Program-made: the position numbers and the translations under genes
Virus record (IMG/VR): IMGVR_UViG_3300027983_000118
Location: 1-24,348 of that record
Strand: one strand, 5' to 3'
From: a virus
DNA length: 24,348 nt
Part shown: positions 399 through 23,627 of the stretch, one piece after another
Layout of the letters: each line of letters begins with the position of its first letter
Numbering within the stretch: position 1 is the stretch's first letter
The notes under the pieces: model-generated
The model's database searches: none
What the model saw: the letters and a program-made list of their open reading frames with translations, nothing else
What the model was told of the DNA's origin: nothing

Positions 399-1161
399 CT
401 TCTTCCTCAACAGACTGAATTAGACCAGTTTCAGGGTCGCGCCTAACGACCTTTTTCCCAGTTTTAGGCGCTTGAACAGTCACGTTGATAATAGGTTGAG
501 GAAGATTGGAAGCGATTTTCTGGGCCATCTCGACAGGGTTCACATTAAAACCTTGATCTGATTGATCTAAATCGTCCCAGTCTTCAGCAAAAAATAGATC
601 GTCCGTGACCCAATTGTTTGATTCAGACATCTCAGTTTGCTTAGCGTCTGCTTCAGCCATAATTTCTTCACTAAATTTCTTAGTGAAAAAAGTCTTTACG
701 TCTTGCTCTGAGTGGCCCATTGACTTAAGACGAAGAGAAACTTGGGCAATCGAATCAGAATCCATTGAGCGCAGTAGACGGCGCAAGTAACCTCGAGGGG
801 CAGAGACGCGCAACTTGCGGCGACCGCGCTTCAAAGGCCCTTGTGTGCGCAGGTGATTATCAAGCAAGTCAATCAGATCATTCTGTCTGTGTTCAAGTGT
901 CATATCCAGAAAGTTTTGTACGTCTACTTTCGATGGATCTTTCGCTCGACCGGCAACAAACTCACGAATATCGCCCTCAGTTGGGGTGTCGTACTCGCGA
1001 GCAGCCTCTCTAACAGCGTCCATCATCCTCATTTTCTCTGTCCTTGCTGCCGGTGAAACGTCACCTTCCTGAGACTTTGACTCTTTTGCCGGAGTGTCAA
1101 CGACTACAGCAGCAGGGGCTTCTGCGAGTCGTACTCCTTTTTCACTAAAGAAAACAGGCAT
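388..1161 (-). CDS. Unknown head-region protein, possible assembly or scaffold protein
   Basis: A 257-residue, strongly charged protein. The ATG shares one base with the portal stop codon (TAATG), implying translational coupling to the portal. The N-terminal 40 residues are Ala/Pro/Glu-rich and probably disordered. The middle (about 40-175) is helical and basic, including a RGRRKLR patch near 113-119. The last 30 residues contain VVRRDPETGLIQSVEEED, a short tail of the kind seen at the ends of several phage head and portal-associated proteins (basic, then D-x-x-G-x-I, then acidic). No protease or enzyme motif is visible. Its place directly after the portal makes scaffold, minor head protein or capsid-assembly factor the main candidates; this is inference. 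Confidence 0.8.
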   Translation of the reverse strand: MPVFFSEKGVRLAEAPAAVVVDTPAKESKSQEGDVSPAARTEKMRMMDAVREAAREYDTPTEGDIREFVAGRAKDPSKVDVQNFLDMTLEHRQNDLIDLLDNHLRTQGPLKRGRRKLRVSAPRGYLRRLLRSMDSDSIAQVSLRLKSMGHSEQDVKTFFTKKFSEEIMAEADAKQTEMSESNNWVTDDLFFAEDWDDLDQSDQGFNVNPVEMAQKIASNLPQPIINVTVQAPKTGKKVVRRDPETGLIQSVEEEDVG

Positions 1162-3488
1162 TACTGAATCTCGTCAAGAATAGATTTGATGATCTTCTTT
1201 TCAACCTCTGGGTCAATACCATCGCTCAAGCTGAGAGTCATAGTCTCTTCGTCCCAGACGGCGCCACCGGACACATCTTGATCGCGCTCGATCTCAAAAT
1301 TAGATGGAAGTGCTTTCCAAGCAACCATTCTGTTCGGGGCGAATATTACTTTCCGCGCCTCTTCGATGATGAACATTGTTCCGTCAAGGTCTGAGCCTTC
1401 TTCAATCGCTACAAGAATGTTTGCGCCTTCAGACTTGGCCGATAGAAATGCTTCCTCGTTATGAAGATTTCTAATAACTTTTACAGCGTCAGAAGCGGAA
1501 TGCCAATCGGCAAAGTCAGCAAAATGCTTGCGAGCAGCATCTGCTTCGTAATCCACAAGATAGTTGCTGACTTCTGAGCGAACAGTTTCTGTCGTCCTGG
1601 AAACAACATCAACTGATTCCTGCTTGGCCCAATCATCTACTTCAGAAGATGCTCCCGAAAGAATCAAACGAATATCTTCAACAGCAGAAACGATCCCGCT
1701 GTTGTCTAGGCCGTTATCTAGATCACTAATGTAAAACTCATACTGACTTTCATAGAAGTCAGTCAAGCGCGACTTCAGATCACGAGCCGCAATACGAGCT
1801 TGCTTGCTCGAGAAATGTGCGGTGTCAGGAAGAGAGCTAATGAAATCTGAGTCAGAATCCGAAAGGTAAATAACTTCTTTCGGCTGGATGTAAGAGAAGC
1901 CATTGCTAGAAGGAACAGTCCCGACTTGCTGGCCGGGTACAGGTGCAACTTCTCCAACACCGGCAGCAGACTGCTGGCTGGCAAGTTCCTGATCTCGCCT
2001 ATTTTGCTCTGCCCAAGGAACAATTGGCGTTCCGCGATCTTCAAGAACTTTCTGAAGATCTACCAATTTAATAATTTCCTTAGCGCCTGCTTCTTGCTGG
2101 CCAAGTAGTTGAACTAGCTGACGCATGAATTCTGTGTCCTCGTCGGCAAACCCTTGAATTATAATTTCCGCTGCTCCGCCAGCAGCAGCAAATTCAGGGT
2201 AGTTGACTGCGATCCATTGCGGGATCATGTAGCGGTTAATATTTTCTTGAATCTGCGCCGAAAGAACAGCCTGAGATTCGGTGAAAGAGTCACTCATCTC
2301 GGCGGCGACATTGCGACTTGAAGTTCCTCCGCCGCCTTCAATTAATGATTGTTCTGGAATAAATAAGGCCCGAAGCTTCATAATATCCAAGTATGAAAAA
2401 CTATTATCAAATGGATCGAAATTAATTGCGTCCTTAGTAAATTCTAATTCCCATTGACGAAGCGTTCCTCTTCCGTTAGCGTCCTCATAAGGCTCTGAAG
2501 GCAAAGCGATAACGCCGCCAGAACGCATACGCGAACCCATTTCTAGCGCGTACTCTTGATACGAAGTTTCAATTCCAGTTAGTGGGTCTTGGAAATAACC
2601 CTCTGGGTATCGGACAATAACTGACGGATCTGCTTTCCGTTCAAAGGCACGATCAGCAATGGCCCAGCGGAACCAATAACTCCACCAAAAGCGATACGCA
2701 TATCCGAGACGCGGATATCCAAAGATGCTGCCGAAAGCAGCTTCCTTCTCGTTAGTTACCCAGAGAGAATGGTCAAGGTCAATTTTATATGTGCTGTCCT
2801 GGTTCGATCCGCCCGAACCACCTGAAGTTGTGATACCAAGCGCAGTGTTCGCGTCAGAAGGAGAATAAAGAATTCCATCGAACTCGCCATCGTTATTCCA
2901 TTGAGGCTCAACGCCTTCAGGACGAAGGGAGATAAATTGCTTCCAAGCAATAGGGTCAATGCTGCCGCTTGACCAAATAGGTTTTTCTACTTGCTCGCCG
3001 CTTGTCGGATTAATTTCAACGTAAGTGCCTACTGGCTGGCGGAATTCAAAGCGCTTAGCAATTGCTTGAAACCCAAAGTCCAGCATGTTTGTATTTTGTA
3101 GTACAAAGCTTGGGTAAATACGGCGCAAATCGTGATCCAGATGTGCTGCAATTTGTGCATTTGGCCCCTTGCTATCTTTTGCGTTAATAAACCACTTAGC
3201 ACGAATGTGAGGGGTCTTAATAAAGCTAAGGCCAAAGCCGAGCATTGCATCACGACGCATCTGGCGCAATTTTGAAAGAGGAATTCTCTCTACTTCATAA
3301 GGACTGCCGAGCTGGTCAGAAACTTCTTTCCAGTTACCAAAGATAGATTGAACTCGGCTCGATGGGGCTACTTCTTTTTTGCCTACTGCTCCCCTTACGC
3401 GAGCAGCTTCTTCTGGCGTAATAGCGCTTACTGGGGCGCCATTACTTTTGGCGCCGCCGCCCTTTGAACTTGCTGGAACATTTGTCAC
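1161..3488 (-). CDS. Portal protein with long C-terminal extension
   Basis: A 775-residue protein starting at GTG 3488, 10 nt after the terminase stop. The portal forms the ring at the capsid vertex through which DNA is packaged. The call rests on position directly downstream of the large terminase and on portal-like sequence: an N-terminal region with RRDAMLGFGLSFIK, a central Trp/Tyr/Arg-rich block (RFWWSYWFRWAIADRAFERKA), and a later GGGGTSSRNVAAEMSDSF followed by a long helix, as in portal stem and crown regions. A Pro/Gln/Ser-rich linker near residues 510-535 separates about 230 further residues that go beyond a usual portal of roughly 450-550 aa. That C-terminal part is acidic and helical and could be a fused minor-head domain; I do not recognise it. 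Confidence 0.8.
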   Translation of the reverse strand: MTNVPASSKGGGAKSNGAPVSAITPEEAARVRGAVGKKEVAPSSRVQSIFGNWKEVSDQLGSPYEVERIPLSKLRQMRRDAMLGFGLSFIKTPHIRAKWFINAKDSKGPNAQIAAHLDHDLRRIYPSFVLQNTNMLDFGFQAIAKRFEFRQPVGTYVEINPTSGEQVEKPIWSSGSIDPIAWKQFISLRPEGVEPQWNNDGEFDGILYSPSDANTALGITTSGGSGGSNQDSTYKIDLDHSLWVTNEKEAAFGSIFGYPRLGYAYRFWWSYWFRWAIADRAFERKADPSVIVRYPEGYFQDPLTGIETSYQEYALEMGSRMRSGGVIALPSEPYEDANGRGTLRQWELEFTKDAINFDPFDNSFSYLDIMKLRALFIPEQSLIEGGGGTSSRNVAAEMSDSFTESQAVLSAQIQENINRYMIPQWIAVNYPEFAAAGGAAEIIIQGFADEDTEFMRQLVQLLGQQEAGAKEIIKLVDLQKVLEDRGTPIVPWAEQNRRDQELASQQSAAGVGEVAPVPGQQVGTVPSSNGFSYIQPKEVIYLSDSDSDFISSLPDTAHFSSKQARIAARDLKSRLTDFYESQYEFYISDLDNGLDNSGIVSAVEDIRLILSGASSEVDDWAKQESVDVVSRTTETVRSEVSNYLVDYEADAARKHFADFADWHSASDAVKVIRNLHNEEAFLSAKSEGANILVAIEEGSDLDGTMFIIEEARKVIFAPNRMVAWKALPSNFEIERDQDVSGGAVWDEETMTLSLSDGIDPEVEKKIIKSILDEIQ

Positions 3489-3498
3489 TTAAAGTCTC

Positions 3499-6400
3499 TC
3501 ATTTCTTAACCCGAGTTACAGGTTCACCTAGGCTTTTGCGCCAATTATCATAATCATCAGTCTGCCCTTTGAATCCTACTGGAGTTGGGCCTGCTGAACC
3601 TGTTTTACTGATTGTTGCTTGACGAGGTATGGTTTTAGCTGCGGGCAAATTGCCGGATATGCTTAGAGCGCGTTGCTTTATCTTCTTAATGTTAGCGACG
3701 GCGTACCTAAAATTGGACATACAGTTAGAACTTCTGACACTATCGGCAAAAAATTCATGGGCGCCATCAACTGTCAAGTCATAAACAGTTTCATTAGACA
3801 CTTTTCTTACCGACACCACAGGAACGAGAACAATATTTTCTGGGAACGTATTTGTTGCACTTAAATTCGCTTCCGCATCGCTCGCAATTCCTGATTTCGT
3901 CATCAACGCCAGCCGCCCTTCTGTGTGCAGATTTGCAGGCATTTGAACAGAATCTTGCTCTTCCAGACGGAGAAGTGTCTCCAAACTCATCTGCACACCA
4001 AACGCACGACTTTTGGAGTGGGTTTTGCTTAAGCGATTCGTGATATTTTCGATTTCCAATCGAGGCTTTGATTCTAGTTTCTGAATTGAGAAGATTTTCT
4101 GTGTGATTTTTTGGCCTAATCTTATCGAGATGATTTTTTCTTTTCTCGCTGCACGGTTGACCTTTATGAATCTCAATGTGTTCTTCTCTGGTAAGACAAA
4201 TAAGATTTTCAACATTGTTGTTGAGCGAGTCAAAGTCTGCGTGATGTATGTGGCAGCCCTCTGGAATATCGCCATTTTCTGCTTTCCAGACTTCTCTGTG
4301 TAAAGACTCAATCCCGAGATAAGCTTCTTGAATCCAAGGTCTGTAGTAGATGCGAGATGATTCATCTTTGGCTTTTGGGTAACGCCGAAACCAAATTCCT
4401 CTGAATTCGATGACTTCTGCTTTGCCTCTTGTGAAAGTTTCCATACTTGATCATTGTATCGGATATCAGAGGTATCAACCCAACCTTTTCCTTCTATCCA
4501 CCAAGGATGATCGCCAGTAGATTTAAGTGAAGTTCCGTCAGCTAACTCAATCTCATATACATCTTGATTAAATCTTGTAATGCCAGCAGCAGTTACTTGA
4601 TGGGGGCCAAAAACAGTATTGACGAACTGACCGACCTGAACATCTTCAATTGAAATATCGCCATCAACAGTGTTGACAATCGTTCCCGCTGGCAGGCAGT
4701 GGTTAAATTTATCGATTTGGCTACCTGTACGCGGATCAGCCCGCCAAGCCTTGATCTCTCTGACAAACATTGGGCAGGCTTCACCGTCAACAACAAAGAG
4801 GTCATCGTCAAACATTGAACGAACAGATTTAATGTGCTCGTCAAATTCTCTTGTTGCGTGCCACTTAGTCGGAAGACCCATTGCTTTCCAATCCATTCTG
4901 GCGGCCTTGCCCTGCGGGTCTGCAAATCTCTCGTAAACACGGAAACTATTGTGCTTGATAGCCCATCTTTTTTCTCTTTCTTGAACAAGCTTTCCTAATT
5001 GCTCATTGCCAATCTCAGAAATATAAATCTCGCCAAAACAAACTAGAGTCCCTTCCTTCAGGCGGCGCGTAATGATTTTATCTTCTGGGTGGTTCCAAAT
5101 TTCAACATCAACTTCAAAAGCTAGAAGCTGATACCAATTAACAGCGTGGGGATTAGTGTTGCCTGACCACACGGGCTTGCCATTGCGTCGAACATAAACC
5201 GTGTGGTGTTCAGGCAAATGGACGCAATAAACTTTACCCATATTCCATTCAGCAGAATTTACCTCAGACTTTACAGGCTTTTGCAAAGGCTTAGAGGCAA
5301 TTTGCGGTTCTAGCCGTTTCTCAATAAAACTCACAATGTACTGCGGCAATCTTGCATTGATCTTGCGCCCGTCAATGATGGAATCGCGTGGTTCACGCAT
5401 AGAAATTGTTGCTGCGCTTCCGGCGTACATGGTAATTTCCTGAAGATCATCAGCCAATTGCTTTGACCCTGTATAAATGCGCTTACTGTGATCGCGTTCG
5501 CCATCATTATCGATGTGGCCGTCGCCTCTCATATGCCAATCTAGATAAATCTTTAGCAAGCTTGCGTCCCACTGCTTCATATCATCGGGCAAGAATTTTT
5601 CACCAGCCTTGCCAAACTGCGCGAAATATGCGTAAAGGCGCGGATCACAAATCTTCAATTGTCCACGCTTAGGCTCGTAGCTGATGTGATCCAGAACTTT
5701 GAAATAACGCCCAGCAATACGCTTAATCTGCGTAATATTCTCGCGGTTGTAATGCGTAAACCCAACATCGCCCGACTGACGACGCTCACCGTGTTTGTTC
5801 TTTCCAAGGTGGGTGTGACCCTCGGCCATCCAAAAGCCTAAAAGCGCAGCCCAATCTTCGGGATCAATGATTACGTCAGGTAGAACACGACCGTCTGCTG
5901 CGGTAATGCCAGAGAGAACAAATGGAGCAAGCACTGCGTCTTCGCGACCCTTGCTGGTTCTGGTAACGCGCAGTCCATCTCCACGTTCGCCAATGCTGTC
6001 GGAACGAATGATTCGCCAATCATCGCGACCCTTGCCGCGTAATGGCGCCACAAGCATATTGTGATCAGCACTAACTAAAAGATCCACGGAACGGTTTTCA
6101 TATCGCTCCATGACCCCGCCGTACTCCTTCTTCACAACGGCTTCAGGCTTCTGAAAAATAACTTTATGCGTCTCGATATTCAGTGAAGCAAATTTGTCCT
6201 CTTCGGCTATTTCAGGAAAAGGAATCCAGCCTCGATCCGTAAGCACCTCTGTCTGTTCGTCATAGCAGCCGCCCCAATCAACTGAAAGAAAAATAGGGCC
6301 ATTTGCAGGATCTACTTCAAAGTTTCTAATGCAATGTCTGTCATCGCGCCATTGAGAAACGTAATGGTGGTGCATTTCTGGCTTAGCGCAGAGCTGCTGC

Positions 6401-8403
6401 ACTTCAAAAGTTACGCGGTCATTCTCGGTGAACTGTTTAACAAGATCGCTGTATGGCTGCCAGCCACGAGATTTATAAAAGTCGCCATTGCAAACATCGC
6501 GTAAAAGTCTTGGCGAACCGTCCTCCCATTCACCTTTACGAATGTTGTCGCATGGGCATCTAATTTCTTCAGCTAAGTCTGGATTCGCAATCTGACAATT
6601 CTTTTGTTGGCTTGCGGTTTCCTTAATACACCAGATATACAGCTTGCGAGGAGGCTTATAGCCCTCTGCAATCGCCTTTTCAATCTCGTCAATTAATTCT
6701 TGGACGCGACCAGACGGGCCTTTACGAGTTGATGTCGCAATGTCTTGCGGGCTAGCAATCGTCCCGTTCTTAATCTTCTTTGAGATCGTCATGTTGCGAC
6801 TGTTATGAGTAACGATAAAATCATTTGTCAAATAAGTGCTGTCGGCGTTATCAACGCCAATGCAACGTACTTTTGTTTTTCTGCTTGGTTTAATAGATTT
6901 AATACTGGGGTCAAGAGTTCTTTGTCGCATTGCCATTTTTTCTACTTTACGCGGAAGCGTAAAAGGCATCGTGAAATCAACAAATGAAATGTCAAGCGTG
7001 TAAAGAATTCCCTTAGACCACTCACTGTTAAAGTTTTTCTGTCGCAAAATTGCCCTGCCGCCAAGACTAAAAACAATCTCTCTGAGATCTAGCGCAAGTT
7101 GTTTAGAAACAGTTGCGTATTGACCAACGCAATTGTCTTGCATCGCGCACCCATCAGTATCCATTAGCCCGCGAATAATTTCTAAACGGTCTTTGGCCGA
7201 CGAAAACTTATAGAGATCAGGAATAAATTTGTCGTGACTTTTTTTGCTTTCTAATCCAATCGAGTCGATGACAGATTTAAATGTTCTGTCAGATCCAGAT
7301 CTAACAATATTGTGATTGGCATATTTGCCAGCAACACAAGAAGAAACTCTGTATTCATCTAAGAAGCTGTCAACTCGCTGAACAATGTGGTCGTCTACAG
7401 AACGAAAAGCGATATTTTTCCCAAGATATCCATCACCTAGCAAAACGCCTAAAACATATGGATGAATAGGAAGTTCAGAATATGAAAATTCAACAGGTTG
7501 ATTGGCGGGAACTCCATAACGGTATTGGCCTATTATTTTTGTTCCATTTTCAATCATTTCTGATGTTCTTACTGTTTTCCAAACGCCTCTCCGTCGTTGA
7601 GAACCACCGGCAACAGTCCAAAGGTGGTCTGCACAACATTCTGTTGATCTTCCGTCAGTGAGCGTCACTCGGTAAACATCACGTTCTCCATAGTCCATGA
7701 CTTTAATTACTTTTGTTGGCATACCATCGCGCCCGTAAACAAAATCTCCCAAACGCAAATCGCCCATCGCTTTATGACCAGTCGGCGTTGGAATTAAAGT
7801 GTCTAATGGTTGTGACTCAAGCCAAGTGTCATCGCGCATAAGCTCAATCTCGTCAGCGTGAGCAATCTGCGGGTGTGGCCCGTTCACGGCCTCGGGCGTG
7901 CTACCCAGCACTTCAATCTTTGATCCATTAGCAAAGACTGTTTCACGCATCAGAGAAGAAACAATCTCGGGCTTTTTATTGCCCTTATCATCAAACACCC
8001 AATGCTTCAGGTGGGCATAAGCGCGGAATGACTGAGCTTCGATGGCCCCGAAAGTACAGCTTTCAATCCCAGGCTTGAAGCGGGCGTTAATCCAATGGAG
8101 AACGGCTACAAGGAAGGTCTTGCTGCCACCACGATTTGCAACTGCCAACGCCGCGTCAACGCGATCAAAATAAAGATCTGCAAGAAAAGTAAATGGGGCG
8201 ACATGGTTCTCGCAAACAGCAGTTCGCGGAACGTCAATGCCAAGTTCGTAAATCAACCATTCATGTAGTTCATCATCGTTTTGAGGGCCATTTTCATTTA
8301 GTTGTTTTTCAAGTTGCTCTTGAGCTGACAACATCTCTTTAAGCTCATCGTCCGAAAGATTGCCGAGAATCTCGAGCATTTTTTCTGATTCGTTTTTACT
8401 CAT
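3499..8403 (-). CDS. terL: Terminase large subunit precursor with three inteins
   Basis: A 1634-residue precursor of the DNA-packaging motor ATPase/nuclease. A TTG immediately upstream (8406) could also start it, but ATG 8403 is preferred; it overlaps the small subunit by 8 nt. Visible motifs are a Walker A-like NRGGSKT (90-96), Walker B with D184-E185 (HADEIELM), the nuclease Asp in SVDWGG (709), and a C-terminal nuclease motif reconstituted as DKFNH-CMSNFRYA. Three inteins interrupt it: Ser197-Asn534 (+1 Ser), Cys713-Asn1082 (+1 Thr) and Cys1236-Asn1560 (+1 Cys). Removing them leaves about 601 residues, normal for a large terminase, and restores contiguous motifs such as SVDWGG-TNPHA. The inteins sit just after Walker B, at the first nuclease motif and in the last nuclease motif. 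Production of active packaging enzyme therefore needs three splicing reactions. Confidence 0.95.
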   Translation of the reverse strand: MSKNESEKMLEILGNLSDDELKEMLSAQEQLEKQLNENGPQNDDELHEWLIYELGIDVPRTAVCENHVAPFTFLADLYFDRVDAALAVANRGGSKTFLVAVLHWINARFKPGIESCTFGAIEAQSFRAYAHLKHWVFDDKGNKKPEIVSSLMRETVFANGSKIEVLGSTPEAVNGPHPQIAHADEIELMRDDTWLESQPLDTLIPTPTGHKAMGDLRLGDFVYGRDGMPTKVIKVMDYGERDVYRVTLTDGRSTECCADHLWTVAGGSQRRRGVWKTVRTSEMIENGTKIIGQYRYGVPANQPVEFSYSELPIHPYVLGVLLGDGYLGKNIAFRSVDDHIVQRVDSFLDEYRVSSCVAGKYANHNIVRSGSDRTFKSVIDSIGLESKKSHDKFIPDLYKFSSAKDRLEIIRGLMDTDGCAMQDNCVGQYATVSKQLALDLREIVFSLGGRAILRQKNFNSEWSKGILYTLDISFVDFTMPFTLPRKVEKMAMRQRTLDPSIKSIKPSRKTKVRCIGVDNADSTYLTNDFIVTHNSRNMTISKKIKNGTIASPQDIATSTRKGPSGRVQELIDEIEKAIAEGYKPPRKLYIWCIKETASQQKNCQIANPDLAEEIRCPCDNIRKGEWEDGSPRLLRDVCNGDFYKSRGWQPYSDLVKQFTENDRVTFEVQQLCAKPEMHHHYVSQWRDDRHCIRNFEVDPANGPIFLSVDWGGCYDEQTEVLTDRGWIPFPEIAEEDKFASLNIETHKVIFQKPEAVVKKEYGGVMERYENRSVDLLVSADHNMLVAPLRGKGRDDWRIIRSDSIGERGDGLRVTRTSKGREDAVLAPFVLSGITAADGRVLPDVIIDPEDWAALLGFWMAEGHTHLGKNKHGERRQSGDVGFTHYNRENITQIKRIAGRYFKVLDHISYEPKRGQLKICDPRLYAYFAQFGKAGEKFLPDDMKQWDASLLKIYLDWHMRGDGHIDNDGERDHSKRIYTGSKQLADDLQEITMYAGSAATISMREPRDSIIDGRKINARLPQYIVSFIEKRLEPQIASKPLQKPVKSEVNSAEWNMGKVYCVHLPEHHTVYVRRNGKPVWSGNTNPHAVNWYQLLAFEVDVEIWNHPEDKIITRRLKEGTLVCFGEIYISEIGNEQLGKLVQEREKRWAIKHNSFRVYERFADPQGKAARMDWKAMGLPTKWHATREFDEHIKSVRSMFDDDLFVVDGEACPMFVREIKAWRADPRTGSQIDKFNHCLPAGTIVNTVDGDISIEDVQVGQFVNTVFGPHQVTAAGITRFNQDVYEIELADGTSLKSTGDHPWWIEGKGWVDTSDIRYNDQVWKLSQEAKQKSSNSEEFGFGVTQKPKMNHLASTTDLGFKKLISGLSLYTEKSGKQKMAIFQRAATYITQTLTRSTTMLKILFVLPEKNTLRFIKVNRAARKEKIISIRLGQKITQKIFSIQKLESKPRLEIENITNRLSKTHSKSRAFGVQMSLETLLRLEEQDSVQMPANLHTEGRLALMTKSGIASDAEANLSATNTFPENIVLVPVVSVRKVSNETVYDLTVDGAHEFFADSVRSSNCMSNFRYAVANIKKIKQRALSISGNLPAAKTIPRQATISKTGSAGPTPVGFKGQTDDYDNWRKSLGEPVTRVKK
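3724..4698 (-). mobile_element. Intein 3 of TerL, hosting an out-of-frame HNH gene
   Basis: In the terminase frame this is a 325-residue intein from Cys1236 to Asn1560, with Cys as the first residue of the following extein. Block A is CLPAGTIVNTVDGDISIEDV; block B contains DGTSLKSTGDHPWW; blocks F and G are VSNETVYDLTVDGAHEFFAD and SVRSSN. The penultimate residue is Ser instead of the common His. Between blocks B and F (about residues 1322-1525) the terminase frame has no LAGLIDADG or HNH motif and no recognisable domain; it reads as a low-information basic linker. The same DNA encodes an HNH endonuclease in another frame. The splicing halves alone add up to a mini-intein of about 120 residues. 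Confidence 0.92.
3794..4444 (-). CDS. HNH homing endonuclease nested out of frame inside intein 3
   Basis: A complete 216-codon gene (ATG to TAA) on the same strand as terL, with its ATG beginning at the third base of a terL codon. The protein has an HNH core: LHREVW (48-53), HIHHADFDSLNNNVENL (66-82, His67/68 and the Asn cluster) and TREEHIEIH (85-93). Two treble-clef or zinc modules follow: CVWC (147-150) with FCSNAC (165-170), and CERC (187-190) with YCSRSC (204-209). This is the organisation of phage HNH homing endonucleases with C-terminal DNA-binding zinc fingers. It fills exactly the gap between the splicing blocks of intein 3 and its last codons overlap block F. No Shine-Dalgarno sequence precedes the ATG. 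It would act by cutting intein-free terL alleles; the activity is inferred from family knowledge. Confidence 0.88.
   Translation of the reverse strand: METFTRGKAEVIEFRGIWFRRYPKAKDESSRIYYRPWIQEAYLGIESLHREVWKAENGDIPEGCHIHHADFDSLNNNVENLICLTREEHIEIHKGQPCSEKRKNHLDKIRPKNHTENLLNSETRIKASIGNRKYHESLKQNPLQKSCVWCADEFGDTSPSGRARFCSNACKSAHRRAAGVDDEIRNCERCGSEFKCNKYVPRKYCSRSCGVGKKSV
5158..6267 (-). mobile_element. Intein 2 of TerL, with LAGLIDADG endonuclease domain
   Basis: A 370-residue intein, Cys713 to Asn1082, with Thr as +1 residue. Block A is CYDEQTEVLTDRGWIPFPEI and block B includes LLVSADHNMLVAP. An in-frame endonuclease domain shows two LAGLIDADG-type helices: LLGFWMAEGHTHLG (854-867) and LKIYLDWHMRGDGHID (950-965), each ending in an acidic-Gly pair. 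The C-terminal blocks are KVYCVHLPEHHTVYVRRNGK and PVWSGN; the penultimate residue is Gly rather than His. It splits the terminase nuclease motif SVDWGG from TNPHAVNWYQ, so the spliced product regains SVDWGGTNPHA beside the catalytic Asp. Both splicing and endonuclease parts look intact. Confidence 0.95.
6802..7815 (-). mobile_element. Intein 1 of TerL, Ser-1 type, with LAGLIDADG endonuclease domain
   Basis: A 338-residue intein, Ser197 to Asn534, with Ser as +1 residue. Block A reads SQPLDTLIPTPTGHKAMGDL; aligning it to the usual C-x-P-x-D-T pattern makes Ser the first residue and restores the extein DTWLE-SRNMT, typical of the region after Walker B in phage terminases. Block B includes STECCADHLW. 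Two LAGLIDADG-type helices are visible: YVLGVLLGDGYL (316-327) and IIRGLMDTDGCA (409-420). The C-terminal blocks include DSTYLTNDFIVTHN, with the standard His-Asn end. If Gln198 were the first residue, the extein would gain a Ser; the Ser-1 reading is preferred but not proved. Confidence 0.93.
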
Positions 8404-8863
8404 CAATGTCGATCTCTACAGCTTCGCCTTCAATCGTGTTGTACTCTTCAATTTGCTTACGAATTACTGTTGCGGTAGGCCCTTGAGTGAGCTTCTTGGA
8501 AAGCATCTCGATTAGTTCTTCTCGAGAATGCTGTGACGATTCGTGTGCTTCTTCTTGTATCTCAAGCCTTCCATGCTGAACAGCAATTTCTACCCAAGCT
8601 TGTGCGCCCTTAAGACGAACTGACATTGGTTGATTGGGGTCAATCGCATCCTTAAATACTTCAATGATCTGCCTTGCTGTGCGATCTACCTCGGCGGCCT
8701 CAGCAACCTTCTTAGAAATGCGCTTACTTTTCCTAGGGGTATTGCCGCCCTTAGCGCCAAAATCAGCGCCGCCCAGCTTGCCATCAGCATGACGCTGCTT
8801 AGCTAAGTCAGATAACTTTTGCCGTGATTCTGGCGAAAAGTTCTTTTTTGGTTTATCGGCCAC
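8396..8863 (-). CDS. terS: Terminase small subunit-like protein
   Basis: A 155-residue, highly charged, mostly helical protein immediately upstream of terL and overlapping it by 8 nt. Small terminase subunits bind the packaging site and hand DNA to the large subunit. The N-terminal 50 residues are basic and Gly/Lys-rich (SDLAKQRHADGKLGGADFGAKGG), followed by a helical region around RTARQIIEVFKDAID and an acidic C-terminus. The start is GTG 8863, which lies 6 nt after a -10-like TAAAAT with no Shine-Dalgarno sequence, so it is probably translated from a leaderless transcript. The assignment rests mainly on gene order and overall character; no HTH motif is certain. Confidence 0.72.
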   Translation of the reverse strand: MADKPKKNFSPESRQKLSDLAKQRHADGKLGGADFGAKGGNTPRKSKRISKKVAEAAEVDRTARQIIEVFKDAIDPNQPMSVRLKGAQAWVEIAVQHGRLEIQEEAHESSQHSREELIEMLSKKLTQGPTATVIRKQIEEYNTIEGEAVEIDIDE

Positions 8864-8898
8864 TAGATAATTTTACACATTGTATGTTATTTATACAA
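8864..8898 (-). promoter_or_regulatory. Leaderless sigma70-type promoter for the packaging genes
   Basis: On the minus strand, TTGTAT (8898-8893), a 17-nt spacer and TAAAAT (8875-8870) are followed after 6 nt by the GTG start of the small terminase. The spacing places the transcription start at or within a base or two of the start codon. This would give the packaging and head genes their own late promoter. It begins within the last codons of the upstream zinc-ribbon/HTH gene. Confidence 0.6.
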
Positions 8899-9699
8899 GT
8901 CTGGGTAGATCTCCCACAAGGCAGTGTTGCCCTCACGGGTAATTGCGACATCAACAGTGTGAAGAGGAATCATCGCAATAACTCTCTCTTTGCCTCTCTT
9001 ATCAATTTCTTTTCCACTTCTCCAGCGATGAATAGACCTTACGTTGGCGTCAACAGCTAATGCAAAACTTTCTATAGAGCCATAAACTTCTATTTTGCTT
9101 TCAATCCATTGCTGAAAAGGCTTTATCTCAATCAAATCACTGTCAGTGCTGCGCTTGTAGTTTGATTGTTTGACTTTTTTCCTTACTGCCGCACCGCGTT
9201 CTCTACGCTTTTGCTCTGCGTAAAACCTTTGATTCTCTCTATAGCGCTCGGCCCATACTGGATCTTCTTTGAGCTTTTTTCTTTGCCATTCATTCCTGGA
9301 CTTCCTGCGCCTAGCGGATCTTTCTTCAGCTAAGCAACTCTTATAAACGAGAGGCGCATAAGGCTTGTCTCTGCCATTTCTTTTGGCATTGCTTACGCGC
9401 CCATTTATTCTCTCACAAGTCCGGCAAATATTACGAAAGTATTGAGGCTCTTCGCGCACCGTTGGGTCTTTCCATTGAGCCACACAGAAATCAACCAAGT
9501 GCCGCCATTTTTTGCACTGGCTACAAGTGCGACGACCGCATGAGACACCTCTACGTTTATTCTTTTTGTCTTCCGGCTTAAGCTTGGGTGCCTTCTTCAT
9601 CTGCAATCTGTAGAGCCTGCTGTATTGTTGACATTTTTCGCAGGTATTAAATCCTTCTTTAGGCTCTCCTTTTTTGCAACGTGAGCATGAGTTACTCAA
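8887..9699 (-). CDS. Zinc-ribbon and helix-turn-helix DNA-binding protein
   Basis: A 270-residue basic protein. The start is TTG 9699, chosen because a strong AAAGGAG lies 7 nt upstream and the codon overlaps the RusA stop; no ATG fits. The N-terminal half has paired cysteines: CSRC (5-8) with CEKC (20-23), then CSQC near 60 with a downstream ICRTCERINGR, resembling the zinc modules at the start of phage HNH or endonuclease VII-like proteins. A long Arg/Lys-rich helix fills about 115-180. The C-terminal 70 residues (SIESFALAVDANVRSIHRWRSGKE onwards, ending EIYPDLYK) look like a helix-turn-helix domain. No HNH catalytic core is seen. It sits just before the packaging promoter, so a late regulator or packaging-associated DNA-binding protein is plausible. 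Confidence 0.75.
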   Translation of the reverse strand: MSNSCSRCKKGEPKEGFNTCEKCQQYSRLYRLQMKKAPKLKPEDKKNKRRGVSCGRRTCSQCKKWRHLVDFCVAQWKDPTVREEPQYFRNICRTCERINGRVSNAKRNGRDKPYAPLVYKSCLAEERSARRRKSRNEWQRKKLKEDPVWAERYRENQRFYAEQKRRERGAAVRKKVKQSNYKRSTDSDLIEIKPFQQWIESKIEVYGSIESFALAVDANVRSIHRWRSGKEIDKRGKERVIAMIPLHTVDVAITREGNTALWEIYPDLYK

Positions 9700-13644: not shown

Positions 13645-14658
13645 TTACCTCATTGAGATTTCGAGCGCTTTCGCTCTGATTTCTTCCTGAAACGTAAGAT
13701 CGCCAGCGATAAATTCGCGCAGCTTCTTTTCGCCCTGGAACTTTTGATCGCCATAATAATAGTAGGCGCCCTTCTGTTGTACTAAACCGTAATAACGTGC
13801 AGCTTTGGAAACTTCAAACAGCCGATCAAACGTGAGTGAGTCAAGATCTAAGCGCATTGTAGCTGTCCGAAATGGACGGCAAACACGAGATTTTTGAATA
13901 CGAGCCTTGATCTCAACTCCGTCAGGTTCTGCTTGACCGCTCATTCCTTTGGTTTGCGTGGCCTTCTCGTCCAAACTACCTTCGCTGTTGCGAAACAACC
14001 AACTACCTTTCTTGAAGTGAACAGTCATTGACGACTGATGATCAAGAATTCTTCCGCCGGGAGCTTCTTCTGCCCCTGTGCGGAAGTTTGTACGCACCTG
14101 ATCAACCATAATAACTGTGTTCTCGGTAGCGTCAAAACGCTCGTTTAAGCGTCTAAAGGATTTGCCCCAAGAGCGAGCAGTAATGCCGGGCCGCCAGTCC
14201 CTTACGTCGGCATTAAGCTCGTCCTCAGAGACTGCTGCGGTACAAGAATCGACAACGTGAAGATGCACAACACTAAAGAGAGCCTCCATCTTATCTGTGA
14301 TCTCTTCGATTGTTGTTCCTTCAACAACAATTAAGTCATCTACGTTAACGCCAATTTTTTCTGCCGTGAACTTTGGATCGTATTGCTTTTCTACGTTGTA
14401 GTAAGCGCACTTCAAGCCTTGCTTCTGAGCTTCGCGGATTACTGATAACGCAGTAAGCGATTTGGCAGAAGAATATCCACCGAAAAATCTAGACCAGCGA
14501 CCGATTGGAAGACCGCCGCCCATAGCAACGTCAAGTTCAAGGCTGCCTGTTGAAATCCTCGCAGCACTTTCAAAATCATTTCCCATGCGAATTGAATTCT
14601 TGTACTTACTGTTGATTTTAGAAACAATTTCATCGTAATTTTCTGTGTTAACTGACAT
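13645..14658 (-). CDS. recA: RecA-like recombinase with altered Walker A
   Basis: A 337-residue recombinase that would catalyse homologous pairing and strand exchange. STGSLELDVAMGGGLPIGRWSRFFG leads into the P-loop GGYSSAKS (60-67), then AYYNVEKQYDPKFTAEKIGV (the RecA catalytic-Glu strand) and the Walker B strand LHVVDSCTAAV. A later IMVDQVRTN fits the RecA L1-side strand. The P-loop has Ala65 in place of the Gly normally before Lys (GPESSGKT in bacterial RecA), which is unusual though the Lys-Ser pair is kept. Its ATG overlaps the DnaE stop by 11 nt. The C-terminal part (about 270-337) is shorter than and unlike that of bacterial RecA, as in other phage RecA-like proteins. Confidence 0.9.
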   Translation of the reverse strand: MSVNTENYDEIVSKINSKYKNSIRMGNDFESAARISTGSLELDVAMGGGLPIGRWSRFFGGYSSAKSLTALSVIREAQKQGLKCAYYNVEKQYDPKFTAEKIGVNVDDLIVVEGTTIEEITDKMEALFSVVHLHVVDSCTAAVSEDELNADVRDWRPGITARSWGKSFRRLNERFDATENTVIMVDQVRTNFRTGAEEAPGGRILDHQSSMTVHFKKGSWLFRNSEGSLDEKATQTKGMSGQAEPDGVEIKARIQKSRVCRPFRTATMRLDLDSLTFDRLFEVSKAARYYGLVQQKGAYYYYGDQKFQGEKKLREFIAGDLTFQEEIRAKALEISMR

Positions 14659-17600
14659 CTAATTCCATTTCTTTAGCGAATTGTTCTACAGAAGCAGCGT
14701 GTTCGCAAACAACGCTAACTGTTCCTTGCCAAGAGTCTGTTGGCCCAGTGACCATGATCGTTTTCCCCTCTGAAAGCAAATCGCCATACATACCAAGCGA
14801 TTCTTTCCAGAATCTTACTCGCCATTCATTCAGGCCGTAGGCCAATATAACAGTCGCGAACGGGCTTCCGCCTTTTGTTCGCTTGCGGTCTACCTTAATG
14901 ATTTCCCCGCCAATAACAACATTCCCGCTTTCAGTTTCATTGACTTCTTCTTGACTAAAGATATTTGATTCAATTAGTTCAGAATACTTTTGAATGTCTG
15001 CGGTGACAGTCAAGTTCATCCCTAGGCGCTCCCGCTCCCAAATTGAAATCTCGCTTTCAGTTGCTTCATCGCGAGCGCCGCAAAAATCAAACGCGCCGGA
15101 TTCTTGAAGCGCCATAAGCGCAGTGTTATTAACTGCCCTTGCAGCAATTCTAGAACGAAAATTCTCCATTGAATCATAAATGCCTTTTTCTCTGTTGCTG
15201 ATAATTGATTTAGCGCCTACTTCACCAACTCCCTTGATGGCCAGCAGGCCAACACGAATTCCTTCATCATCAACAGACCAGCCAACTTCTGAGTTATTGA
15301 CGCACGGCGGTCTAATTTGTACGCCGCGCATCCTCGCTTCACGAATTACCTTAGAAACAAACTGTTGTTTCTCTTGAGGCTTTGACCCTGATGGGTAAGT
15401 CAAAACAGCGGCGTAAAACTCGAGCGGATACTTAGTTTTAAGGTACATATCTTGATAAGCCTGCAAAGCGTATGAGGCGGAATGCGACTTATTGAATCCG
15501 TAATTTCCAAACTCAAGAATTTTATGCCAAATCTCGTCTGCGGTCTTGCGATCAATACCTTTATTTTCGCAACCTTCAAACCATTTGACCTCAAAGCGCT
15601 TCATAAACTTTTTCGCAGCAGAACCGCCCTTAATTCTGTAAAGCTTGCCCATTGCCTTGCGTAAATCATCTGCCTCCCCGCCAGAGAAGCCGCCAATAGT
15701 CTTTGAAATCTCCATTACCTGCTCTTGATAGGTAACAAGCCCATAAGTCTCAGACAAGATCGGCTCAATAAGTGGGTGCCAAGTGTCGTACTCGCCACTT
15801 CGCTTGCGCTCGCCGTAATCCCAAGTAACCCCGCCTTTCATTGGGCCTGGCCGGTACAGAGCGTTTGCTGCTGCAAGATCAAGAGCGACATCAGGCTTGA
15901 TGTCTTTTAGCAGACCAGTAATCCCGCTACTGCCAAACTGGAAAATCCCAATCGTGTGGCCATTGCCGAATCCATTCATTACTTCTCTATCAACGTCGTA
16001 TGGATCTCTTAGCGGGCCGAGCGAGTAAAGATCAACTGTTTCTCCGTATCGCTTCTCAATCAAATTGCAAGCATAAGCGTGACGATCAAGACCAGTAATG
16101 CCAAGAGCATCAATCTTAAGAAAGCCGTAGTCAGAGACGACTGGAAAATCTGCTGCGTCTGACCAAGAGGTGACAAGATCGCCTTTTTTGCCTCTCTCCA
16201 AGGCTATGTATTCAACAACTGGGCCGGGAGTAATGATAATTCCAGCAGCGTGTTTGCCAGCGTTCTTAACAGATCCTTCGAGGCGCAAAGCGTGTTCCCA
16301 AATATCTGGATGTTTTTTCTTAAAGTCTTTTAGCCTGTTGTTGTTCGGAAGAATCTCTTCAAGTGTCGTGTCCTCGTCGTCTTGACGAATATCAATTGTG
16401 TCAGTTACAGCGTGTGCCTCGCCGTATGGGATATCGTAAACGCGACAGAGATCTTGGATGACAGATTTAGGCTGAAAGCGCGAGTGGGTGATGATGTCAG
16501 CAACGTGATCTGCACCATATTTGCTGGCAATATAAGCCTTTACCTCGCCACGCCTATTGCTCTGGAAGTCAAGGTCGATGTCTGGAAGCCCCTTGCGCTC
16601 AGGATTGAGGAAGCGCTCAAACAGAAGACCCCAAGCAATTGGGTCAATGGCGACAATTCCAACTAGATAAGAGATAAGAGAGCCAGCAGCAGACCCGCGA
16701 CCAAGACCGACTCTAATGCCAGTCTTTTTTGACCAGCGCACCACATCGCCAACCAGCACAAAGTAGTCAATAACTCCCTTGCTGGCAAGAATTTCCCACT
16801 CCATCGCGATCCGCTTTAAATAAACTTCTTTGGGCCATTTCTCCCAATGACTTTCTGGGTAATTGGTAAGAATTTTCTCTAGGCCGTCGTTGATCCATTC
16901 ACGCAAGATCTGTTCTGCTGTTATCTTCTCGCCGTCATCAATAACCTTTGGCAGTTTTGGAGATTTGTCCAAAAGAAATGGTGTTGCTTTTCTTACAAAC
17001 AGGCCAGTGTTATCAAGTGATTCTTGAACAAAAGATTCAGAAAGGCCAGGATGATTTTCTCTAAACCAGTCAAACATTTCTACTTCAGAAGAAAGATAAA
17101 GGGTTGGATTTAACTCTGCGAGATAAACAGGTTTCCCTTTTTCTCTGTCTTCCTCAACTCTTGCAAATGAAGTTGCTGCGCCACACATTTTTGCGATCCT
17201 GTGTGTTTCGGCCCATTCTTTGAATGGGAAGTGGGCGTCATTGGTGGCGATTACGCCAATCCCACGTTCCTTTGAAATACCAGCGATCTCGAGATTGAGA
17301 ATTTTCTGTTGCTCAAAATCGTGAGGCATAATCTCGAGCCAGAAGTCTTCACCAAAGATTGAAGTCATGGTGTCGATATATTCTCTGACGCTAACTGAGT
17401 CGCCGCCCTCAATAAGATTGTTCAACCAGCCAGAAACACAAGCGGAAGAACAAGCAAGACCTTCCGAGTGCCTGCGCAGAAGGTCGTAGTCAACGCACGG
17501 ATATTGGTAGTAGCCGCCGCCATCGTCAATTTCAGCGTAAGCAATACTGACAAGACGAAGAAGATTGTGCCAACCTCGAAGGTTCTTGGCAGATAAAACA

Positions 17601-17857
17601 AGATGCCAAGCCTGTCGTGTGTCTTTGCTGGAGCGATCCGGCCTGAAATAAGCCTCTACGCCAGAGATCGGCAAGATGCCGACATCACGGCAGGCTTCGA
17701 TGTGCTCTAGTGCTCCGCTGAGCGAGCCGTGATCGGTCTGCGATAGGGCAAACTGATTAAGCTCAGCTGCTCTTTCAGCATATTGCTTGGACGAGCCACA
17801 GCCGTCAAGTCGAGAATACTGTGAGTGCCGATCTTCGATGCAAGTGTACGAAGTCAC
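14648..17857 (-). CDS. dnaE: DNA polymerase III alpha subunit (DnaE-type), start region frame-shifted
   Basis: A C-family replicative polymerase of 1069 residues as read from GTG 17857. The N-terminal PHP domain shows HSQYSRLDGCG, TDHGSLSGALE, GVEAYF and IATNDAHF. The polymerase core shows GLGRGSAAGSLISYLVGI, the catalytic PDIDLDF (Asp426, Asp428), the third Asp in LKIDALG (583), and FNKSHSASYALQAYQ. A tandem HhH-like segment (LLAIKGVGEVGAKSI) and an OB-like C-terminal domain (VVIGGEIIKVDRKRTKGG) follow, as in DnaE. The natural start is probably ATG 17864, which overlaps the upstream stop as TGATG behind AAGGAAGGTGAT, but that frame reads FVHLH and then ends after 19 codons because of a 7-nt duplication. 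Read from GTG, the first conserved PHP histidine is lost. Confidence 0.93.
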   Translation of the reverse strand: MTSYTCIEDRHSQYSRLDGCGSSKQYAERAAELNQFALSQTDHGSLSGALEHIEACRDVGILPISGVEAYFRPDRSSKDTRQAWHLVLSAKNLRGWHNLLRLVSIAYAEIDDGGGYYQYPCVDYDLLRRHSEGLACSSACVSGWLNNLIEGGDSVSVREYIDTMTSIFGEDFWLEIMPHDFEQQKILNLEIAGISKERGIGVIATNDAHFPFKEWAETHRIAKMCGAATSFARVEEDREKGKPVYLAELNPTLYLSSEVEMFDWFRENHPGLSESFVQESLDNTGLFVRKATPFLLDKSPKLPKVIDDGEKITAEQILREWINDGLEKILTNYPESHWEKWPKEVYLKRIAMEWEILASKGVIDYFVLVGDVVRWSKKTGIRVGLGRGSAAGSLISYLVGIVAIDPIAWGLLFERFLNPERKGLPDIDLDFQSNRRGEVKAYIASKYGADHVADIITHSRFQPKSVIQDLCRVYDIPYGEAHAVTDTIDIRQDDEDTTLEEILPNNNRLKDFKKKHPDIWEHALRLEGSVKNAGKHAAGIIITPGPVVEYIALERGKKGDLVTSWSDAADFPVVSDYGFLKIDALGITGLDRHAYACNLIEKRYGETVDLYSLGPLRDPYDVDREVMNGFGNGHTIGIFQFGSSGITGLLKDIKPDVALDLAAANALYRPGPMKGGVTWDYGERKRSGEYDTWHPLIEPILSETYGLVTYQEQVMEISKTIGGFSGGEADDLRKAMGKLYRIKGGSAAKKFMKRFEVKWFEGCENKGIDRKTADEIWHKILEFGNYGFNKSHSASYALQAYQDMYLKTKYPLEFYAAVLTYPSGSKPQEKQQFVSKVIREARMRGVQIRPPCVNNSEVGWSVDDEGIRVGLLAIKGVGEVGAKSIISNREKGIYDSMENFRSRIAARAVNNTALMALQESGAFDFCGARDEATESEISIWERERLGMNLTVTADIQKYSELIESNIFSQEEVNETESGNVVIGGEIIKVDRKRTKGGSPFATVILAYGLNEWRVRFWKESLGMYGDLLSEGKTIMVTGPTDSWQGTVSVVCEHAASVEQFAKEMELDVS
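17829..17839 (-). repeat. Imperfect 7-nt tandem duplication disrupting the dnaE start
   Basis: On the minus strand, ATCGAAG is followed directly by ATCG. Removing one 7-nt unit joins the ATG 17864 frame to the main dnaE frame and yields FVHLHRHSQYSRLDG, which matches the canonical DnaE PHP opening (E. coli FVHLRVHSDYSMIDG). With the unit present, the ATG frame stops after 19 codons. Confidence 0.7.
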
Positions 17858-23529: not shown

Positions 23530-23567
23530 TACGCCCCCGGTCGGAATCTACGCCCCCGGTCGGAATC
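23530..23567 (-). repeat. Two perfect tandem copies of the tRNA 3' end
   Basis: The 19-nt unit TACGCCCCCGGTCGGAATC occurs at 23530-23548 and again at 23549-23567 (plus strand). The second copy covers the acceptor 3' strand and half of the T arm of the tRNA; the first lies immediately downstream of the tRNA. This may be a duplication scar or a remnant of recombination at a tRNA 3' end; no integrase gene is in the window. Confidence 0.9.
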
Positions 23568-23623
23568 GAACCGACGACCTGCGGATTAGAAGACCGCTGC
23601 TCTATCCGCTGAGCTACAGGGGC
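23551..23623 (-). tRNA. tRNA-Arg (anticodon TCT)
   Basis: A 73-nt cloverleaf can be drawn by hand: acceptor GCCCCTG paired to CGGGGGC (one G-T pair), D stem GCTC/GAGC, anticodon loop CTTCTAA with TCT at the anticodon, variable loop AGGTC, and T arm GTCGG-TTCGATT-CCGAC. The discriminator base is G and CCA is not encoded. One T-T mismatch closes the anticodon stem. It reads AGA, and possibly AGG, codons. Its 5' end is only 4 nt after the endolysin stop, so it is probably cut from the same transcript by RNase P. Confidence 0.95.
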
Positions 23624-23627
23624 AAAC

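What the first reader, a model, noticed from the sequence alone, without database searches (positions are those of the whole stretch)
3499..8403. Three inteins in one terminase, each at a different catalytic motif
The terminase precursor has inteins just after Walker B, at the first nuclease Asp motif and in the last nuclease motif, together 1033 of 1634 residues. The three differ in first residue (Ser, Cys, Cys), +1 residue (Ser, Thr, Cys), penultimate residue (His, Gly, Ser) and endonuclease type (LAGLIDADG, LAGLIDADG, out-of-frame HNH), so they look like independent invasions. Inteins in phage terminases are known; three in one protein, at these three sites, is uncommon as far as I know.
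Basis: partly seen in the sequence, partly recalled or inferred. Interest (0 to 1): 0.7.

Follow-up and report, generated by a model that had tools for sequence, protein, structure and literature searches.

The report
Hidden second-frame nuclease inside terminase intein
A phage DNA-packaging enzyme is interrupted by three self-removing protein inserts, and the third carries its DNA-cutting gene hidden in a different reading frame of the same DNA, a layout that turns out to be common in environmental phages but that I could not find described.

Summary
Confirmed: the minus-strand terL ORF (window 8403-3499, 1634 aa) holds three inteins of 338, 370 and 325 aa (1033 in all), and the four closest intein-free relatives have all three sites empty. 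The inteins are not copies of one another.

The larger finding is intein 3. Its homing endonuclease (216 aa, HNH plus zinc fingers) is not a domain of the intein. It is a separate ORF (4444-3794) lying wholly inside the intein in the -1 frame. This is not a quirk of the window. In an HNH-based set, 71 of 104 loci have it. In a set fetched by splicing domain only, 70 of 80 do, all in the same register and none in frame. Synonymous codons there avoid stops in the intein frame (0 seen, 138.5 expected). Substitutions follow HNH codon positions. AlphaFold gives a good HINT domain at both intein ends, a poor middle, and a good HNH fold in the other frame. One phage pair differs by an in-frame 573-bp loss of this nuclease. 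Relatives also carry the same HNH between halves of split inteins, or free beside intein-free terL.

Best reading: a TerL intein family with an overprinted homing endonuclease gene. Splicing, translation and cutting are inferred, not shown.

The parts
3499..8403 (-). terL precursor ORF, 1634 aa, with three in-frame inteins
   Evidence: portal-like gene downstream, PHROG terminase hits of the intein-free relative L184
7816..8403 (-). extein 1 (N-terminal ATPase part)
   Evidence: aligned with uninterrupted relatives L184-L187; weak Pfam TerL_ATPase E 0.29
6802..7815 (-). intein 1, 338 aa, Ser1...His-Asn|Ser, LAGLIDADG
   Evidence: site empty in 4 of 4 intein-free relatives
6268..6801 (-). extein 2
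5158..6267 (-). intein 2, 370 aa, Cys1...Gly-Asn|Thr, LAGLIDADG, in the VDWGG|TNPH motif
   Evidence: site empty in 4 of 4
4699..5157 (-). extein 3
3724..4698 (-). intein 3, 325 aa, Cys1...Ser-Asn|Cys; HINT halves at residues 1-95 and about 290-325
   Evidence: Pfam Intein_splicing 2.7e-11; AlphaFold pLDDT 95-98 at both ends; Foldseek to solved inteins; site empty in 4 of 4
3794..4444 (-). overprinted HNH homing-endonuclease gene (216 aa) in the -1 frame, wholly inside intein 3
   Evidence: Pfam HNH_3 2.7e-14, phrog_15471 4.7e-26; AlphaFold mean pLDDT 88.6; all invariant His, Asn and Cys positions present; same register in 70 of 80 loci fetched by splicing domain alone
3502..3723 (-). extein 4 (C-terminal end of TerL after the last nuclease motif)
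1161..3488 (-). portal-like gene downstream of terL (context)
   Evidence: Pfam Portal_Mu 6e-9; phrog_113 4.7e-11
8396..8863 (-). 155-aa ORF upstream of terL; small terminase only by position (inference)
   Evidence: no confident family

Best explanation
The terL gene makes one precursor from which three cis-splicing inteins excise themselves to leave a 601-aa terminase. Inteins 1 and 2 are ordinary inteins with an in-frame LAGLIDADG domain. Intein 3 belongs to a widespread family of phage TerL inteins in which the homing endonuclease is not a domain of the intein but an independent HNH/zinc-finger gene, translated from its own start codon in the -1 frame and overlapping the intein from the end of the N-terminal HINT half to the start of the C-terminal HINT half. 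In the intein frame that stretch is a passenger linker, kept free of stop codons so that the ribosome reaches the C-terminal splicing half; in the other frame it is a conserved nuclease that cuts intein-less terL at the conserved nuclease motif, so that repair copies intein and nuclease gene together. SHOWN here: the two overlapping ORFs, their constant register across phages, coding constraint on the HNH frame, stop avoidance for the intein frame, intact splicing and nuclease motifs, empty sites in relatives, and a natural pair with and without the HNH. INFERRED: splicing, HNH translation (internal initiation), target specificity, homing.
For: Register: HNH-based set, 71 of 104 loci have the HNH inside a longer open frame, always HNH frame +1. 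Splicing-domain-based set, 70 of 80 have an HNH at the same register, 0 in frame, 0 in the third frame. Stop avoidance by synonymous shuffling in the intein frame: first set 0 observed vs 163.4 expected over 14000 codons, against 187 vs 186.8 in 32 non-nested HNH genes; second set, not chosen for openness, 0 vs 138.5 over 11040 codons in 63 distinct genes. Substitutions fall at HNH codon positions 3>1>2 in nested pairs (77788, 52330, 45622; 678 pairs) as in non-nested pairs (10929, 7376, 6593; 109 pairs), and the intein-frame reading is no more conserved in nested than in non-nested genes (24% vs 23%). HNH active-site His/Asn and zinc Cys invariant in 55 proteins and present in the window's. 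AlphaFold: intein frame 95-98 at residues 1-90 and 291-326, about 40-79 in between; HNH frame mean 88.6. Foldseek: intein model matches solved inteins, e.g. NpuDnaB 4o1r TM 0.84 and NrdJ-1 8ubs TM 0.77 by target length. L131 vs L127/L128: flanks 96-98% identical, the latter lack 573 bp (191 codons) of the HNH, keep its 3' remnant and an open 138-aa intein. Ribosome-site-like match of 4 or more nt near the HNH start in 46 of 70 nested loci vs about 20% of random start codons.
Against: No splicing, translation or cleavage data. The window's own HNH start has only a 3-nt Shine-Dalgarno-like match. The Shine-Dalgarno comparison takes the best of several candidate starts, which inflates it. The second set was fetched with a pattern from ten nested inteins, so it leans to their kin. 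The constant register may mean only that this register tolerates openness: shuffles give about 1.2 stops per 100 codons there but about 10 in the other frame. Deep branches of the HNH tree are unresolved, so one or several origins cannot be told apart.
Confidence: 0.85

Rival explanations
1. Assembly or sequencing error: the HNH is really in frame with the intein and two indels shifted it.
For: A pair of indels could give this picture in a single contig.
Against: The same register in 70 of 80 loci fetched by splicing domain alone and 0 in frame, also in complete isolate genomes: Acinetobacter phage Highwayman, Tetrasphaera phage TJE1, a Rhodobacteraceae phage, and a Halobacterium plasmid. The HNH frame has its own start and its own stop before the C-terminal splicing half.
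Confidence: 0.02
2. The HNH is a dead remnant and intein 3 is effectively a large mini-intein.
For: Weak Shine-Dalgarno in the window; a long end branch for the window in the tree; L127/L128 show that the HNH can be lost.
Against: All invariant catalytic and zinc residues are present in the window's copy; the family shows codon-position constraint; 216 codons open from an ATG with no stop.
Confidence: 0.1
3. The HNH is made as a fusion to the N-terminal half of the precursor by -1 ribosomal frameshifting rather than from its own start.
For: The HNH is in the -1 frame and directly follows the N-terminal splicing half.
Against: In the window the HNH frame has a TGA three codons before its ATG, leaving two codons for a slip and no slippery heptamer by eye; ATG is the first start near the HNH in 49 of 70 nested loci.
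Confidence: 0.05
4. Insertion 3 is a self-splicing intron or an unspliced insertion like the ShiLan element, not an intein.
For: ShiLan-type out-of-frame HNH insertions are known in phage methylases and do not splice detectably (PMC11855218, parts 1-4 of 6 read).
Against: Full intein motifs at both ends, Pfam Intein_splicing, HINT model and Foldseek hits to inteins; Rfam at gathering scores finds only a tRNA in the window.
Confidence: 0.03
5. Each nested case arose separately by a free HNH gene dropping into a mini-intein at the one register that stays open; there is no coherent family by descent.
For: Nested and non-nested HNH genes are interleaved in the tree (13 changes at least; unresolved); only this register tolerates openness.
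Against: Splicing halves of nested inteins are mutually similar and 64 of 66 distinct junctions of the first set sit in the same TerL motif; nested labels are more clustered than in any of 500 shuffles.
Confidence: 0.3

Closest known systems
ShiLan domain / Pacc40 gp60 out-of-frame HNH insertions in phage DNA methylases (PMC11855218, parts 1-4 of 6 read; also PMC12613952, passages)
   Same: An HNH gene in another frame inside a host ORF that stays open; homing-like, patchy distribution.
   Different: Those lack any intein splicing domain and are thought to stay in the protein; here the HNH lies inside a bona fide intein that should remove the passenger stretch from the terminase.
Mycobacteriophage TerL inteins (PMC5050341, abstract and passages read)
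   Same: Inteins in phage large terminases.
   Different: The passages place those inteins in the N-terminal ATPase domain at seven sites; two of the window's three are in the nuclease motifs. The passages mention no out-of-frame endonuclease (term count 0).
Cyanophage vB_AphaS-CL131 dCTP deaminase intein with HNH_3 (PMC6293099, passages)
   Same: Intein with an HNH_3 nuclease, shown to self-excise in E. coli.
   Different: There HintN and HNH_3 are given as domains of one protein, i.e. in frame.
Split inteins with a free endonuclease gene between the halves ('fractured genes', Dassa et al. 2009; title seen in a reference list, paper not held, content recalled)
   Same: Endonuclease gene separate from the intein halves; 20 of the 104 loci fetched here have at least one such TerL half next to this HNH.
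   Different: In the window the intein is continuous and overlaps the gene.
Natural split TerL inteins AceL-TerL, GOS-TerL, Cat-TerL (PMC11766414, passages)
   Same: Inteins in phage terminase.
   Different: Split near the N-terminus (25-37 aa N part); no HNH mentioned.

Membership tests
Intein (cis-splicing) | Nucleophile at residue 1 and Asn followed by Cys/Ser/Thr at the C-terminal junction | tested here: met
Intein (cis-splicing) | HINT fold of the two ends | tested here: met
   intein 3; inteins 1 and 2 by sequence only
Intein (cis-splicing) | Absent from close homologues at a precise site | tested here: met
   4 of 4 intein-free relatives at all three sites
Intein (cis-splicing) | Protein splicing | not testable with these tools
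   needs expression
Intein with fused homing endonuclease domain | Endonuclease in the intein's own reading frame | tested here: not met
   intein 3: HNH in the -1 frame. Inteins 1 and 2 meet it (LAGLIDADG_3)
ShiLan-type out-of-frame HNH insertion | HNH ORF in another frame, host frame open | tested here: met
ShiLan-type out-of-frame HNH insertion | No intein splicing domain (as reported for ShiLan) | tested here: not met
Split intein / fractured gene | Intein halves on separate ORFs | tested here: not met
   window ORF is continuous; met in relatives
HNH homing endonuclease | HNH active-site residues and DNA-binding zinc ribbons | tested here: met
   no solved structure matched by sequence or by fold at E 0.001 (I-HmuI 1u3e at E 0.75)
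HNH homing endonuclease | Cleavage of the empty terL site | not testable with these tools
   needs protein
Group I/II intron | Rfam intron model match | tested here: not met

The most novel reading that the evidence does not exclude
Overprinted endonuclease genes are a missing step between ordinary inteins and split inteins. Because the nuclease lives in another frame, the intein frame across it is free passenger sequence; one nonsense mutation plus a start near the C-terminal half turns a continuous intein into a split one with the nuclease gene between the halves, without harming the nuclease. The same HNH at the same TerL motif in all three states (continuous and overlapped, split, free beside empty terL) would be this path caught in progress, and would explain how 'fractured' genes arise.
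Probability: 0.35. Interest if true: 0.85.

Novelty: new variant of a known kind. Interest (0 to 1): 0.7.

Why it matters
Intein endonucleases are described as domains nested inside the intein protein (PMC6801210, abstract and passages: all such domains sit at one conserved site). Here, at that kind of position, a whole family carries the nuclease as a separate overlapping gene. Annotation pipelines and intein surveys that read only the host frame miss it: the public records call the whole stretch 'terminase large subunit' or 'Hint domain-containing protein'. It is a compact natural case of two genes in one stretch where one frame is needed only to stay open, it makes the origin of split inteins testable with natural alleles, and it supplies ready-made inteins whose linker tolerates arbitrary sequence.

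Tried and rejected
Rejected ideas. In-frame HNH with compensating indels: refuted by the other genomes. Intron: no Rfam match. Frameshift fusion: TGA just before the HNH start in the window. Dedicated promoter for the HNH: 2 promoter-like sites in 3700-5200 against 2.2 in shuffles, i.e. nothing. Recent copying among the three inteins: no.

What led nowhere. P0002 alone as query in viral contigs found one weak locus. The eight-protein alignment had no stretch fit for scanning. The quick tree leaves 44 of 87 inner branches open and warns of long branches, among them the window's, so I do not say how often the nested state arose. Foldseek of the HNH model gave no confident match.

Rows dropped. 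From the 104 HNH loci, L102 was set to non-nested by hand (short match, frame open only around it), L043 was skipped in the shuffle test because of an N, L102, L103, L104, L012, L006 and L043 were left out, those plus L085 and L055 out, and L102, L103, L104, L012, L006, L043, L100 and L085 out of the tree. In one search the junction pattern failed or erred for L067 and L085 (N-terminal end not found), L047, L066 and L083 (wrong place, mended by hand). Of the 33 non-nested loci I count 20 with at least one TerL split-intein half, 7 free beside an intein-free terL (L031, L043, L068, L086, L097, L009 by reading; L007 by annotation), L002 upstream of the small terminase, L011 unclear, and 4 weak matches. 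Ten of the 80 splicing-domain loci lie on contigs already in the first set (by contig names), and near-copies occur in both sets.

Papers. PMC11855218: parts 1-4 of 6 read. PMC5050341, PMC10448857, PMC6801210, PMC6293099, PMC11766414, PMC12613952, PMC7344957: passages only. Not held, so not read: bioRxiv 10.1101/2025.01.02.630785 on actinobacteriophage inteins with 'non-canonical architecture' (title seen in a reference list), which may describe such cases, and Dassa et al. 2009. My statement that I found no description rests on searches of an open-access library only.

Full report
OBSERVATION. Its 1634 residues hold three in-frame insertions at P0001 residues 198-535, 714-1083 and 1237-1561 (338, 370, 325 aa; 1033 in all). 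Inteins 1 and 2 match LAGLIDADG_3 and intein 3 matches Intein_splicing across its two ends. A scan with extein 2 found five relatives: L183, 99.97% identical over 6646 bp and bearing inteins 1 and 2 up to its contig end, and L184-L187 (88, 88, 85, 65% over extein 2), whose terL is uninterrupted at all three sites. The insertions are therefore real and recent relative to these terminases. The +1 residue of site 3 is Cys in three of these four and Ala in L185. The inteins are only distantly alike.

THE HIDDEN GENE. Inside intein 3 lies P0002 (4444-3794), an HNH_3 protein with two C-terminal CxxC pairs of zinc ribbons. It covers intein residues 85-302 in the -1 frame. In the phage records, tblastn with P0002 gave 28 records. 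In Acinetobacter phage Highwayman, Tetrasphaera phage TJE1 and a Rhodobacteraceae phage the match lies inside a gene annotated terminase large subunit, in another frame of it, always the same offset. A Halobacterium plasmid with phage genes has it inside a 'Hint domain-containing protein'.

HOW COMMON. A viral-contig scan with an alignment of three of these HNH proteins returned 80 loci (430 confirmed, capped) and a genome scan 11. With the phage and plasmid loci and the window, 104 HNH loci were examined. In 71 the HNH is covered by a much longer open frame, always the frame one base on from the HNH's, never the other (L102 set aside by hand). The pattern search found the N-terminal Cys in 69 of these 71; +1 was Cys in 62 and Ser in 6, the one Thr being a pattern error; penultimate His 44 and Ser 18. 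After mending three rows, 64 of 66 distinct junctions lie in the last TerL nuclease motif (RY-like residues at +2, +3, +5 or +6: 7, 1, 18, 38) and 2 in another form. Host identity: 59 of 70 sequences scanned (66 N-exteins and four whole relatives) match one terminase PHROG.

A SAMPLE NOT CHOSEN BY HNH. To avoid choosing on the nuclease I scanned with the N-terminal splicing domain of ten of these inteins: 80 loci, 10 of them on contigs seen before. An HMM of the HNH found it in 70 of 80, every time at the same offset; none in frame, none in the third frame. Of the other ten, two run off the locus, five are mini-inteins of 126-138 aa, one is 249 aa and two (402 aa) are a different kind. Four distinct junctions of this set lie at the first nuclease Asp motif, the motif of the window's intein 2 (L108, L132, L144, L147). 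The probe came from nested inteins, so the 70 of 80 is a share among their kin, not among all TerL inteins.

IS THE OVERLAP SELECTED? Shuffling synonymous codons within each HNH gene keeps its protein and codon use. In the intein frame the nested genes of set one have 0 stops where 163.4 are expected (openness was the criterion there); non-nested ones have 187 against 186.8. In set two, where openness was not a criterion, 63 distinct genes have 0 against 138.5 expected; the third frame has 1204 against 1196.5. For the window alone the result is not significant (0 against 1.1, p 0.17). So the family-wide intein frame is kept open by selection. Yet its sequence is not conserved: nested pairs at 45-60% HNH identity share 24% in the intein frame, the same as non-nested pairs (23%), and changes fall at HNH codon positions 3>1>2 in both. 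The HNH frame is the constrained protein; the intein frame is a passenger that must only stay open. Because the third frame would hold about 20 stops per gene, this register may simply be the only one possible, so its constancy alone does not prove common descent.

STRUCTURES. AlphaFold with 52 intein rows gives pLDDT 95-98 for residues 1-90 and 291-326 and about 40-79 between; with 47 HNH rows the other frame gives mean 88.6. Foldseek matches the first to solved inteins, the HINT domain. The HNH model has no match at E 0.001; I-HmuI is second at E 0.75.

A NATURAL DELETION. L131 and L127/L128 are 96-98% identical around the intein. L127/L128 lack 573 bp, exactly 191 codons, of the HNH gene, keep its last stretch and have an open 138-aa intein with both splicing ends. 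The 3' remnant shows loss, and the multiple of three shows that the intein frame mattered. This is what a dispensable nuclease over an essential splicing frame predicts.

THREE STATES. Of the 33 non-nested loci, 20 show at least one half of a split TerL intein beside the HNH: TerL plus N-intein ending within or just before the HNH, and/or a short ORF with C-intein and C-extein beginning inside its 3' end, often with a Shine-Dalgarno-like start. Lactobacillus phage CL2 and Brochothrix phage BL3 (HNH broken) are named examples. Seven more have the HNH as a free gene right behind an intein-free terL with an empty motif. One nuclease family, one target motif, three arrangements: this is the basis of the novel case. 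That nested forms turn into split ones is a hypothesis; the tree is too poorly resolved to test it, and the split forms I read carry a longer, different-looking N-intein.

HOW IT MOST LIKELY WORKS. Shown: the overlapping ORFs, constraint and openness, intact motifs, empty relatives. Inferred from established intein biology: the precursor splices three times to a 601-aa terminase; the HNH is started at its own codon within the terL message (ATG in 49 of 70; Shine-Dalgarno-like match of 4 or more nt in 46 of 70 against about 20% of random starts, though only 3 nt in the window); it cuts intein-free terL of a co-infecting relative and is copied in by repair.

COMPARISON. The nearest published case is the ShiLan element, an out-of-frame HNH in a phage methylase without splicing domains (PMC11855218). 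Here the same trick sits in a true intein, which removes the passenger stretch from an essential protein. Intein HNH domains are otherwise reported in frame (PMC6293099). Ten searches of an open-access library found no account of an out-of-frame endonuclease within an intein; a directly relevant preprint was not held, so priority is uncertain. I file it as a new variant of a known kind.

Noticed in passing
L183 end, window about 5156: The near-identical contig L183 stops 2 nt past the 3' junction of intein 2, as an assembler might if part of the population lacks that intein; could also be chance.
   Followed up: no
L131 750-1740; L127 4001-4420; L128 3451-3870: Closely related phages with and without the HNH in the same intein: a ready pair for bench work.
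   Followed up: yes
L013 (Halobacterium plasmid pGSL19_54.9) 3469-5781: The same layout in a haloarchaeal plasmid with portal and capsid genes, likely a provirus.
   Followed up: partly
L177, L178: 402-aa inteins without the HNH, found by the same splicing-domain probe, in what look like non-terminase host genes.
   Followed up: no
L006 727-2607 (Brochothrix phage BL3): Annotated gp2 (large terminase) and gp3 are the two halves of a split TerL intein with a truncated HNH between them.
   Followed up: partly
window 14648-17857 and 13645-14658: Reading the translations, a DnaE-like polymerase III alpha subunit (1069 aa) and a RecA-like protein; no family search was run on them.
   Followed up: no
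window 23550-23624: tRNA-Arg (anticodon TCT) on the minus strand.
   Followed up: no
window 8887-9699: 270-aa basic protein with CxxC pairs upstream of the packaging genes, no Pfam, PHROG or NCBIfam match.
   Followed up: no
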